From Clostridia bacterium (GTDB taxonomy: Bacteria; Bacillota; Clostridia; Christensenellales; Borkfalkiaceae): DNA of 64,000 nucleotides. A model generated the notes under the pieces. It saw only the letters and a program-made list of their open reading frames with translations. It was not told where the DNA came from and did not search any database. The position numbers and the translations under genes were made by a program. Numbering within the stretch: position 1 is the first letter of the stretch; every line of letters begins with the position of its first letter. The stretch lies in assembly GCA_017468085.1 (NCBI GenBank), contig JAFUJR010000034.1, forward strand, positions 124,001 through 188,000, given 5' to 3'. This document shows, piece by piece, positions 58,170 through 62,444 of the stretch.

Positions 58170-59801
<1,632 letters not shown>

Positions 59802-59859: not shown

Positions 59860-60621
59860 TCATACAAGATTTTCCAAAATGAGTTTGTCTGCCACAAGCG
59901 CGATAAATTCACTGTTCGTCGGTTTTTCTGCGCCCAAATAAATACGTGCGCCAAATATGGCGTTAACAGCCTCTATCCTGCCCCTATTCCACGCTACTTC
60001 AATCGCGTGTCGAATTGCCCTTTCCACTTTGCTTGCCGTCGTATCGAATTTTTTGGCAATCGACGGATAAAGTTCTTTGGTTACGCTGTTGATAATATAA
60101 GGATTTTCAATCGTCATTTTAATCCCTTCTCGCAGATAATTATAGCCCTTAATATGCGGTGGGATGCCGATAGAAATAAAGATTTCACTAATCTTTTCCT
60201 CGATGCTCATAGGTCTGCGTTTGGGCATAGAAATTTCCTTTTCTTCTTCCTTAGAATTATCCATAAGCTCGACAATACGTTCCATAGCCGTTTGTATACT
60301 GAACGGCTTTACCAAATAATACAATGCGCCTGCGTTGATTGCCGCTTCGATAAAACTATCAGCTGCCATACCCGTTGCAACAATTTTCGTATTCGGTAAT
60401 TCTCTTTTGACGGCGCGCATGACGCTACAACCGTCCGTTCCCTTTAAAAACATACTCACGATTACCAAATCGGGCTTTATTGCAAGTATCTGTTTGATAC
60501 CCTCGTCTCCATCGTCGCCCGAATATTTAAGAATAAAATTCCCCTTCTCGGCAAACGCTTCTTTGAGCTGTGTAACCACCGCGCTGTTTGCCTCTAATAA
60601 AACTACTGTATTTTCCTGCAT
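59860..60621 (-). CDS. spo0A: Stage 0 sporulation protein A homologue with a degenerate receiver
   Basis: This 253-residue protein is the master regulator type. The C-terminal effector domain (about 145-253) is strongly conserved (HIKGYNYLREGI, LYPSIAKKF, TTASKVERAIRHAIEVAW, KPTNSEFIALVADKL). The receiver (1-120) keeps Thr in VATG and Lys in LVKPF. However, the phospho-acceptor position 56 is Ser (DLVIVSMFLKGTDG, where LVLDIIMP is usual), and the acidic pair is E10-A11 rather than D10-D11. Classical Asp phosphorylation therefore looks impossible. Start ATG 60621 follows GAAGGGA, and an upstream TTG frame start at 60636 is rejected. It is not next to spoIVB as in other spore-formers. Confidence 0.93.
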   Translation of the reverse strand: MQENTVVLLEANSAVVTQLKEAFAEKGNFILKYSGDDGDEGIKQILAIKPDLVIVSMFLKGTDGCSVMRAVKRELPNTKIVATGMAADSFIEAAINAGALYYLVKPFSIQTAMERIVELMDNSKEEEKEISMPKRRPMSIEEKISEIFISIGIPPHIKGYNYLREGIKMTIENPYIINSVTKELYPSIAKKFDTTASKVERAIRHAIEVAWNRGRIEAVNAIFGARIYLGAEKPTNSEFIALVADKLILENLV

Positions 60622-60668: not shown

Positions 60669-60697
60669 ATTATACTACATATTTTTTCGAGAGTCAA
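60669..60697 (-). promoter_or_regulatory. spo0A promoter
   Basis: Minus-strand TTGACT (60697-60692), a 17-bp spacer, TATAAT (60674-60669), a near-consensus sigma-A promoter. Confidence 0.85.
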
Positions 60698-60757
60698 GAT
60701 TATTTTACAATATTCAAAAATATTTTTCAAAATTATCTTGAATATTGTACAAAAATA

Positions 60758-60774
60758 TGTCGAAGTTTGTCGAA
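60758..60774 (+). promoter_or_regulatory. Tandem 0A boxes upstream of spo0A
   Basis: Two perfect TGTCGAA heptamers (60758-60764 and 60768-60774) are separated by 3 bp, so they are in the same helical phase. They lie about 95-112 bp upstream of the predicted spo0A transcription start, which suggests autoregulation. Confidence 0.7.
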
Positions 60775-60836: not shown

Positions 60837-62414
60837 TTAAGCGTGCGTTTCGTCGATGTATTCGTCGTAAGTAACCTGACGGTCATAGCACTTCGTTTCG
60901 TTGATTTCAATGATGCGGTTTGCAACCGTATTCATCAATTCTTGGTCGTGCGAGGTCAAAAGCATACAGCCTTTGTAGTTACTCAACCCGTTATTTAACG
61001 CCGTAATCGACTCCAAGTCGAGATGATTGGTAGGTTCGTCAAAAACAAGGAAATTACTGCCCTCAAGCATCATTTTAGCGAGCATACAGCGAACTTTTTC
61101 GCCACCCGAAAGAACGTGCGCCTTTTTAAGCGCTTCTTCGCCTGAGAACAGCATTCTGCCCAACCAGCCGCGCAGATATTCTTCGTAGTGGTCGTTAGAA
61201 AATTGAGAAAGCCATTCGACCAAGTTCAAATCGCAGTCTTGGAAATATTCGTTGTTGTTTTGGGGGAAGTAAGACGTGGAAATCGTCTTGCCCCACTTTA
61301 CCGTACCCGCATCGGGCTGTTCTTTGCCCATCAAAATATCGTAAAGCATCGTAAGCGTCGTGCTCTTGTCGGAAACGATACCAATTTTTTCGCCGCGCTG
61401 TACCGTAAAGGATACGTTTTTGAAATACCCATCTTTGGTCAAATCCTCAACGATGAGAATATCGTTGCCGATTTCCTTCTCAAATTTGAAATCAATGTAA
61501 GGATATTTTCTAAGAGAGGGCTTGAAATCGTTGATAGTGAGCTTTTCCAATTCCTTTTTACGAGAGGTTGCTTGACGGGATTTGGATGCGTTTGCCGCAA
61601 AGCGCGCAATAAAGTCTTGCAATTCCTTAGCGCGTTGCTCCGCTTTTTTATTCTGCTCCTTTTGCTGACGGGCAAGAAGCTGGCTCGTTTGATACCAAAA
61701 ATCGTAGTTACCTACGTACATATTGATTTTACCAAAGTCAACGTCGCAGATATTCGTACAAACCTTGTTGAGGAAATGGCGGTTGTGAGATACGATGATG
61801 ATGGTGTTTTCAAAATCCATCAAATAATTTTCCAACCAACGCACCGTTTTGATGTCAAGGTTGTTGGTAGGCTCGTCCAAAAGCAATACGTCGGGATCAC
61901 CAAAAAGCGCCTGTGCCAACAAAACGCGGACTTTTTGCTTTGCGTCCAAATCACTCATCAAACAATAATGTAAATCTTCCTGAATATCCAATGCATTCAA
62001 AAGCTGAGCGGCTTGGAATTCTGCGTCGTAGCCGTTCATTTCAGCAAATTCGCTTTCCAATTCCGCCGCACGCACGCCGTCTTCTTCCGAAAAATCGGGT
62101 TTCATATACAGCGCGTCCTTTTCGTCCATGATTTCCACAAGACGTTTATATCCAAGCATAACCGTACGCAAAACCGTTTCGTTATCGTACATATTTTGGT
62201 TTTGTTGCAAAACGGACATACGCTCGTTTTTATCCATAGACACAAAGCCTTTCTGTGGTTCAATTTCGCCCGAAAGCACTTTGAGGAAAGTGGATTTGCC
62301 TGCGCCGTTTGCACCGATAATGCCGTAGCAATTCCCCTTCGTGAATTTTAAATTAACGTCCTCAAACAATTTTTTACTGCCGTATTGCAGAGAAACACCG
62401 GTAACCTGTAACAT
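60837..62414 (-). CDS. ABC-F family ATPase (translation factor type)
   Basis: This 525-residue protein has two ABC domains without membrane segments. The first has Walker A IIGANGAGKST. The second has a degenerate Walker A (GIVSDKSTTLTML) with intact signature LSGGEKVRCMLAKMML and Walker B FLVFDEPTNHLDLES. A charged P-site-tRNA-interaction-motif linker (ARQQKEQNKKAEQRAKELQ) lies between them. ABC-F proteins act on ribosomes, and some confer antibiotic resistance. This one looks like the housekeeping YbiT/YkpA type. Start ATG 62414 follows GAGGTG. Confidence 0.9.
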   Translation of the reverse strand: MLQVTGVSLQYGSKKLFEDVNLKFTKGNCYGIIGANGAGKSTFLKVLSGEIEPQKGFVSMDKNERMSVLQQNQNMYDNETVLRTVMLGYKRLVEIMDEKDALYMKPDFSEEDGVRAAELESEFAEMNGYDAEFQAAQLLNALDIQEDLHYCLMSDLDAKQKVRVLLAQALFGDPDVLLLDEPTNNLDIKTVRWLENYLMDFENTIIIVSHNRHFLNKVCTNICDVDFGKINMYVGNYDFWYQTSQLLARQQKEQNKKAEQRAKELQDFIARFAANASKSRQATSRKKELEKLTINDFKPSLRKYPYIDFKFEKEIGNDILIVEDLTKDGYFKNVSFTVQRGEKIGIVSDKSTTLTMLYDILMGKEQPDAGTVKWGKTISTSYFPQNNNEYFQDCDLNLVEWLSQFSNDHYEEYLRGWLGRMLFSGEEALKKAHVLSGGEKVRCMLAKMMLEGSNFLVFDEPTNHLDLESITALNNGLSNYKGCMLLTSHDQELMNTVANRIIEINETKCYDRQVTYDEYIDETHA

Positions 62415-62444
62415 GAAACACCTCAAAAATATATTTACGAAAGA

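What the first reader, a model, noticed from the sequence alone, without database searches (positions are those of the whole stretch)
59860..60621. Spo0A whose receiver lacks the phospho-acceptor aspartate
Codon 56 is AGT (Ser) exactly where B. subtilis Spo0A has Asp56, and D11 of the acidic pocket is Ala. The switch Thr and Lys and the whole DNA-binding domain are conserved. Spo0A activation by Asp phosphorylation is otherwise universal among studied spore-formers. Here the receiver may be constitutively active, controlled by ligand or dimer partners, or phosphorylated on Ser. Alternatively, a second canonical Spo0A exists elsewhere.
Basis: partly seen in the sequence, partly recalled or inferred. 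Interest (0 to 1): 0.8.

Follow-up and report, generated by a model that had tools for sequence, protein, structure and literature searches.

The report
Spore master switch without phosphorylation site
In a large group of uncultured gut bacteria that still carry core spore-making genes, the master switch Spo0A has mostly lost the amino acid by which it is normally turned on, yet it is kept by strong selection and its likely target sites are still in place, so these bacteria probably start the programme some other way.

Summary
The only Spo0A_C gene found in this 82%-complete genome (minus strand, 59860-60621, 253 aa) has Ser at 56, Glu at 10 and Ala at 11.

It is not an oddity of one assembly. 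In the 80 best relatives, position 56 is S 50, G 24, E 3, N 2, D 1, and Asp11 is absent. Across the family, 13 of 18 genera have no Asp56 among the rows read. In other families of the order 62 of 70 rows keep Asp56; 7 have Glu.

The gene is not decaying: receiver median dN/dS is 0.08. SpoIVA, SpoIIAB and SigF-like genes are present. Spo0A boxes sit at a fixed place upstream of spoIIA and, as in-phase tandem boxes, upstream of spo0A itself.

Best reading: a pseudo-receiver Spo0A that works without Asp phosphorylation, probably switched by its own abundance; ligand or partner control is not excluded. Ser phosphorylation is unlikely, because most close relatives have Gly there. A sister family keeps Spo0A and SpoIVA with no HisKA kinase found.

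Open: whether these bacteria make spores (alpha/beta SASP found in 0 of 121 genomes) and how the switch is set. Nothing was tested at the bench.

The parts
59860..60621 (-). spo0A coding sequence, 253 aa, ATG start at 60621, stop 59860-59862
   Evidence: TIGR02875 220 bits (cut-off 200); Response_reg 46.6 bits; Spo0A_C 138 bits
60262..60612 (-). receiver domain, residues about 4-120 (pseudo-receiver)
   Evidence: Response_reg 7-116; dN/dS median 0.079 in 46 close pairs of D-less relatives
60589..60594 (-). codons 10-11: Glu-Ala in place of the metal-binding Asp-Asp pair
   Evidence: position 11 is Asp in 0 of the 80 best relatives; no family row read has the Asp-Asp pair
60454..60456 (-). codon 56, AGT (Ser) in place of the phospho-acceptor Asp
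   Evidence: S 50, G 24, E 3, N 2, D 1 of 80 relatives
60370..60375 (-). codons 83-84, Thr-Gly; the switch Ser/Thr column is Gly84
60307..60309 (-). codon 105, conserved Lys
   Evidence: K in 79 of 80, R in 1
59881..60192 (-). Spo0A_C DNA-binding domain, residues 144-247
   Evidence: dN/dS median 0.025
60669..60697 (-). sigma-A-like promoter of spo0A: TTGACT, 17 bp, TATAAT
   Evidence: 11 of 12 consensus matches; TATAAT in the last 150 bp of 93 of 94 family upstream regions
60757..60774 (-). two 0A boxes in tandem, 10 bp apart: TTCGACAA (60767-60774, exact) and TTCGACAT (60757-60764)
   Evidence: In the window as a whole the octamer is not over-represented (5 found, 4.55 expected)
60699..60756 (-). 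AT-rich array (TTGTACAA, TTTTACAA-type) between the 0A boxes and the -35 element; nature unknown
   Evidence: enriched in family spo0A upstream regions
58173..59801 (+). groEL, convergent neighbour (context only)
60837..62426 (-). ATPase gene with two ABC domains (ABC-F type, recalled) upstream of spo0A on the same strand (context only)

Best explanation
This is the orthologue of Spo0A turned into a pseudo-receiver regulator. It has no Asp to phosphorylate at position 56 and probably binds no catalytic metal. Shown by sequence: loss of Asp56, of the Asp pair and, in column 84, of the switch Ser/Thr; selection on the receiver; a conserved DNA-binding domain; Spo0A boxes upstream of spoIIA and spo0A. 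Inferred: the protein still binds tandem 0A boxes and still activates the early sporulation operon spoIIA. Inferred: activation no longer passes through a kinase; the receiver dimerises without phosphate, and the switch is set mainly by how much Spo0A the cell makes, through an autoregulated sigma-A-type spo0A promoter with helically phased boxes. A further input, a small ligand or partner on the receiver or another protein on the AT-rich array, is likely but unidentified.
For: Loss of Asp56: 79 of 80 best relatives; 13 of 18 family genera have no Asp56 among rows read, and no family row read has the Asp-Asp pair. Other families of the order keep Asp56 in 62 of 70 rows. At least 12 changes between D and not-D on the tree.
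Function kept: receiver dN/dS median 0.079, DNA-binding domain 0.025, in 46 of 58 close pairs that had usable dS; 2 pairs are from the window's own group (0.05 and 0.07). Spo0A_C in 114 of 121 family genomes.
Targets: an 0A box in one orientation within 60-120 bp upstream of spoIIAA, exact in 10 of 39 loci and within one mismatch in 22 of 39 (permuted octamers: exact mean 0.02, max 1; one mismatch mean 0.6, max 16); 19 of the 25 boxes lie 88-98 bp from the start; exact at 93 bp in the window's own genome.
Autoregulation: exact box 95-190 bp upstream of spo0A in 39 of 94 (permuted octamers mean 0.16, max 20), with a second box at exactly 10 bp in 26 (<=2 mismatches; 12 at 20 bp, 0-4 at the other spacings from 8 to 23); periodicity of about 10.5 bp.
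Programme: SpoIVA in 39 of 41 family genomes, SpoIIAB over cut-off in 101 of 121.
Kinase independence nearby: in family f25, 10 of 10 genomes have Spo0A and SpoIVA, and 6 of 6 scanned have no HisKA match.
Precedent for abundance control: VmsT, said to be perhaps constitutively active with regulated production (PMC12632262, passage).
Against: No spore has been seen. Alpha/beta SASP was found in 0 of 121 family genomes, so the programme may not end in an ordinary spore. The box evidence is sequence only, and 17 of 39 spoIIA regions show no box within one mismatch. Eight of the 39 are from Asp56-keeping genera. 0A boxes upstream of spo0A also occur in Asp56 sisters (exact in 12 of 30), so autoregulation is ancestral and does not itself show abundance control. 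The AT-rich array occurs in D-less and D-keeping family members alike (1.55 and 1.67 per gene, the latter from 6 genes), so it is not tied to the loss of Asp56. The own genome still has 3 HisKA kinases. One close relative (L025) has Asp at 56. No structure could be predicted.
Confidence: 0.5

Rival explanations
1. Ligand- or partner-controlled pseudo-receiver: the receiver lost phosphorylation but gained an allosteric ligand or a protein partner that sets dimerisation, as in other atypical response regulators.
For: The receiver keeps strong constraint, and some sites are more conserved than in Asp56 sisters, for example L9, N12, D37, P50, L59, Y101, R115. Pseudo-receivers that bind end products (JadR1, RedZ) or heterodimerise (WhiI/BldM) are described in PMC12632262 (passages).
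Against: No candidate ligand or partner was found. The recurring neighbours look like housekeeping genes. The sites listed were picked after the fact, and the D-less rows are more closely related to each other than the sister rows, which alone lowers variability.
Confidence: 0.25
2. Relic: Spo0A is on the way out in a lineage that no longer sporulates, and its receiver is drifting.
For: SASP found in 0 of 121; position 56 varies among S, G, N, E; no Spo0A_C match in 7 of 121 family genomes; Christensenella species are called non-spore-forming in PMC11536998 (passages).
Against: dN/dS about 0.08, retention in 114 of 121 genomes, SpoIVA and SpoIIAB kept, and placed 0A boxes.
Confidence: 0.07
3. 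The sporulation programme has been put to another use (for example engulfment without a resistant spore), and Spo0A runs it constitutively or by the cell cycle.
For: Early genes and SpoIVA kept while SASP was not found. Epulopiscium is a precedent for re-use, but its Spo0A keeps the phospho-acceptor residues and its genome keeps SASP genes (PMC3416734, passages).
Against: SpoIVA is listed as a spore cortex and coat protein (same passages). SASP absence rests on one short model and was not tested in sister families. Compatible with the best explanation rather than opposed to it.
Confidence: 0.12
4. A canonical Spo0A sits in the missing part of the genome or on another replicon, and this is a paralogue.
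For: The assembly is 82% complete. Three family genomes have a second Asp-bearing receiver with a weak Spo0A_C match (L117, L122, L123), and 14 of 28 extra family matches were not read.
Against: Of 11 same-genus genomes at 93% completeness or more, nine have one Spo0A_C hit, one has two (both with Gly56) and one has none; in 7 of those nine the copy was read and lacks Asp56. This copy carries the well-conserved DNA-binding domain.
Confidence: 0.04
5. Phosphorylation on Ser56 by a Ser/Thr kinase.
For: Ser at 56 in 50 of 80 relatives.
Against: Gly in 24 of 80 and in 22 of the 33 closest relatives; Asn, Glu elsewhere.
Confidence: 0.02

Closest known systems
Spo0A (TIGR02875; Bacillus subtilis, Clostridioides difficile)
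   Same: Domain order, DNA-binding domain, 0A boxes upstream of spo0A itself and of spoIIA (the box consensus and spo0A autoregulation read in PMC3485338, passages).
   Different: No acceptor Asp, no metal-binding Asp pair, no switch Ser/Thr in column 84; different neighbours (ABC-F-type ATPase and groEL).
Pseudo-receiver / aspartate-less receiver response regulators (PMC4395418 and PMC12632262; passages read)
   Same: Receiver without active-site residues; the first acid (Glu) and the Lys tend to stay.
   Different: PMC4395418 says the Thr/Ser and Tyr coupling residues generally remain; here the Ser/Thr column is Gly. In the passages I read no Spo0A of this kind is named. Here it is the apparent sole Spo0A in most genera of a family with core sporulation genes.
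BldM and WhiI of Streptomyces (WhiI/BldM heterodimer, PMC12632262, passage)
   Same: Atypical response regulators in a developmental programme; the heterodimer acts only when both are expressed.
   Different: Another output domain, another phylum and another kind of spore (recalled).
Spo0A of Epulopiscium (PMC3416734, passages)
   Same: Spo0A kept although entry into the programme seems hard-wired.
   Different: It keeps the phospho-acceptor residues according to that paper.

Membership tests
Spo0A (by descent) | Scores over the equivalog model and Spo0A_C cut-off | tested here: met
Spo0A (phospho-activated regulator) | Acceptor Asp56 | tested here: not met
   Ser56
Spo0A (phospho-activated regulator) | Acidic pair D10/D11 | tested here: not met
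   Glu10, Ala11
Spo0A (phospho-activated regulator) | Switch Ser/Thr | tested here: inconclusive
   Column 84 is Gly; Thr83 adjacent to a one-residue indel
Spo0A (phospho-activated regulator) | Conserved Lys | tested here: met
   Lys105
Spo0A (phospho-activated regulator) | Binding to 0A boxes | not testable with these tools
   Boxes are in place by sequence; no binding assay
Spo0A (phospho-activated regulator) | recN-spoIVB-spo0A gene order (recalled) | tested here: not met
   Neighbours in the window are an ABC-F-type ATPase and groEL; of the 33 closest loci 28 hold the ATPase, 20 groEL and 18 both, some contigs ending early. Sister families were not examined
[quoted passage not shown]
   definition read in PMC12632262
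Pseudo-receiver response regulators | Acts without Asp phosphorylation | not testable with these tools
   needs protein work

The most novel reading that the evidence does not exclude
Most of a family of predicted spore-formers starts its programme without any phosphoryl transfer to Spo0A. The pocket was dismantled stepwise (metal-binding Asp pair first, then the acceptor, then a drifting residue; inferred from living forms), the decision moved to the abundance and cooperative self-activation of a pseudo-receiver Spo0A, and in the same order Asp56 was also replaced by Glu in several other families, including a small-genome family in which no HisKA kinase was found.
Probability: 0.4. Interest if true: 0.88.

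Novelty: new variant of a known kind. Interest (0 to 1): 0.74.

Why it matters
Activation of Spo0A is treated as the entry gate of endospore formation; [quoted passage not shown] A lineage that keeps core sporulation genes and placed Spo0A boxes but not the acceptor would show that the phosphoryl gate can be removed, and offers a natural series at positions 10, 11 and 56 (from DD/D in sisters to QD/D, ES/D, QD/E, EN/E, ES/G and ES/S in the family) for watching a two-component regulator turn into something else. It also warns against using presence of spo0A as a marker of ordinary sporulation in gut genomes, as PMC11536998 does as its first criterion (passage).

Tried and rejected
Spo0E phosphatase as a test of lost phosphorylation: found in 1 of 161 order genomes, so its absence here says nothing.

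HisKA kinase counts against residue 56: 41 Asp genomes (median 6) against 7 others (median 2; values 0,0,1,2,3,4,8), p = 0.04, or 0.054 per megabase, with no correction for kinship. The numbers were entered by hand; genomes without both values were left out. I do not lean on it: one Glu56 genome has 8 kinases.

SigF model TIGR02885: no family genome passes its cut-off (0 of 41), although 40 of 41 have a best match of about 245 bits or more, so I say only SigF/SigG-like.

The AT-rich array as operator of an unknown factor: exact 12-mer sites are few (3 in the own genome, one of them at spo0A). In one genome (G080) the only two lie upstream of spo0A and spoIIA, but the spoIIA one overlaps a -10-like TACAAT. 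Degenerate 0A boxes, curved DNA or another factor remain possible.

First 0A-box scan upstream of spoIIA (30 loci given, 26 located; 5 exact against 0.4 expected) and the first genus scan were replaced by the ATG-anchored one (39 loci, of which 26 and 13 of the genus). In one search one more genus locus (L245) shows an exact box that the ATG choice misses.

Rows dropped before counts: one non-Spo0A regulator (L092_1_1_0); L115-L123, L125 and L126 as paralogues (L121 is in fact the only Spo0A_C match of its genome, G094, and shows no receiver motifs); one short row (L196). Near-identical rows were removed before the tree (188 to 136). Genome-contig loci and genome-search loci overlap in part, so the family tally of 126 rows holds duplicates; L023 and L027 come from one assembly. 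One search confirmed 177 relatives and returned the best 80 only.

Print search: searches gave no paper that I recognised, from listings, abstract starts or the passages read, as describing an Asp56-less Spo0A. Open-licence PMC only; most subscription papers are not held.

Full report
What is there. The finding's coordinates are right, but the gene is on the minus strand. The 253-aa product passes the Spo0A equivalog model (220 bits, cut-off 200) and has a receiver and a full Spo0A_C domain. Codons 10, 11, 56, 84 and 105 read Glu, Ala, Ser, Gly and Lys. Only one Spo0A_C match exists in the genome, which is 82% complete and 5.4% contaminated.

Not an error and not one species. A search of named genomes confirmed 177 relatives and returned the best 80; I read those 80. 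Position 56 is S 50, G 24, E 3, N 2, D 1; position 11 is never Asp; position 10 is E 76, D 4; Lys105 is kept in 79. Many record titles name gut samples; some name Candidatus Gallimonas and Scatosoma. That this is the GTDB family Borkfalkiaceae in Christensenellales is my recollection; NCBI places these two genera only in Clostridia incertae sedis and lists Candidatus Borkfalkia under Christensenellaceae.

Where it was lost. Within the family, rows read from all 18 genera show no Asp56 in 13 genera; genera g2, g15, g17 and g18 have Asp56 in the one or two rows read and g7 in 4 of 5. In all, 11 of 126 family rows have Asp56 (duplicates included), and all 11 have a changed acidic pair. In other families of the order, 62 of 70 rows have Asp56, 7 have Glu and 1 could not be read; none has Ser, Gly or Asn. 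On a 136-row tree built without columns 10, 11 and 56, at least 12 changes between Asp and not-Asp are needed (quick search, 47 of 133 inner branches weakly supported). The order thus shows graded dismantling of the pocket, with Glu substitutions in several families and free drift in the family of the window.

Is it alive? Yes by selection: of 58 close pairs of these genes, 46 had usable dS and give median dN/dS 0.079 for the receiver and 0.025 for the DNA-binding domain. The pairs share species, nearly all carry Ser56 and most are from one part of the family; the window against its nearest relative gives 0.05. The gene is kept in 114 of 121 family genomes.

Is the programme there? SpoIVA is found in 39 of 41 family genomes (36 over cut-off) and in the own genome (593 bits). 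SpoIIAB is over cut-off in 101 of 121. SigF/SigG-like genes are in 40 of 41, below the SigF cut-off; in the own genome one lies directly after spoIIAB. Against this, alpha/beta SASP was found in 0 of 121, with B. subtilis positive as control. Whether ordinary spores are made is open.

Does it still have targets? Upstream of spoIIAA an 0A box (TTCGACAA) in one orientation is exact in 10 of 39 loci and within one mismatch in 22 of 39; 19 of the 25 boxes lie 88-98 bp before the start; permuted octamers give exact mean 0.02, max 1, and one-mismatch mean 0.6, max 16. Seventeen loci show none; 8 of the 39 are from Asp56-keeping genera. In the window's genome the box is exact at 93 bp. For the genus, 5 of 13 are exact and 9 of 13 within one mismatch. 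The core TGTCGAA is the published Spo0A box (PMC3485338, passages).

The spo0A promoter. Exact boxes lie 95-190 bp upstream in 39 of 94 family genes (permuted octamers mean 0.16, max 20), with a second box at exactly 10 bp in 26. The region has a periodicity of about 10.5 bp, stronger and longer than in sisters. Exact boxes are also found in 12 of 30 sister upstream regions. Between boxes and the -35 element lies an AT-rich array of TTGTACAA/TTTTACAA type: 1.55 per D-less family gene against 0.07 expected, 1.67 in 6 Asp56 family genes, 0.37 in sisters (0.05 expected), 0.34 upstream of spoIIA (0.09 expected). In the window: boxes 60757-60774, array 60699-60756, promoter TTGACT-17-TATAAT at 60697-60669. 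The array may be degenerate 0A boxes, curved DNA or sites of another factor.

Kinases. The own genome has 3 HisKA matches. In family f25, 6 of 6 genomes scanned have none. HATPase_c, which should also catch other histidine kinases, gives 3 to 6 matches in each of 10 f25 genomes, of GyrB/ParE/MutL-like size (about 640-720 aa) or SpoIIAB size (about 155 aa), apart from a 116-aa frame in G232 and a 214-aa frame at a contig end in G166; one match each in G166 and G198 was not listed. All 10 have Spo0A and SpoIVA. Residue 56 there is Glu in two genomes read and Asp in one. One f9 genome (G128, Glu56) also has no HisKA match.

Interpretation. The shown part is a pseudo-receiver Spo0A under selection with its boxes in place. 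Inferred is that it acts without phosphorylation and is set by its abundance through its own promoter. Autoregulation is ancestral, so it is a plausible fallback, not proof. Pseudo-receivers that bind ligands, act by heterodimers or may be set by production are described in PMC12632262 (passages), so ligand or partner control is the main rival. Changing Asp to Glu alone is reported as often not sufficient, Spo0A among the examples (PMC4395418, passage), so the Glu56 lineages need more than that change.

Filing. By descent it is Spo0A. As a phospho-activated Spo0A it fails tested features; as a pseudo-receiver it passes the definition read in PMC12632262.

The recount changed wording, not odds: Asp11 is absent in the 80 best relatives but present in some other family genera (g2, g3, g5, g6, g17), where position 10 is changed.

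Noticed in passing
L258 1-9201 (G065:C13:139500-148700); L022 3623-7982: Mobile elements appear to integrate at the 3' end of spo0A: a 237-bp direct copy (89%) of the gene end flanks an element with a tyrosine recombinase (Phage_integrase 110 bits) next to intact spo0A in L258; a 77-bp copy (97%) flanks about 4.2 kb in L022 with a short ORF that resembles that recombinase's start by eye (no Pfam match).
   Followed up: partly
family f1, 121 genomes: No alpha/beta SASP match in any of 121 genomes although SpoIVA (39 of 41) and SpoIIAB (101 of 121 over cut-off) are kept.
   Followed up: partly
family f25, e.g. G144, G184, G221: Genomes of about 0.8-1.2 Mb with Spo0A and full-length SpoIVA; the six scanned for HisKA have none.
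   Followed up: partly
L125, L259, L260 and similar hits: Stand-alone Spo0A DNA-binding-domain proteins of about 120-135 aa without a receiver in several genera; two near-identical copies in one genome (G066).
   Followed up: no
L025 (SVHT01000001.1): One close relative has Asp at position 56 inside the altered pocket (Glu10, Ser11); a reversion or a retained residue.
   Followed up: no
window 60699-60756: AT-rich array upstream of the spo0A -35 element, conserved in the family, nature unknown.
   Followed up: partly
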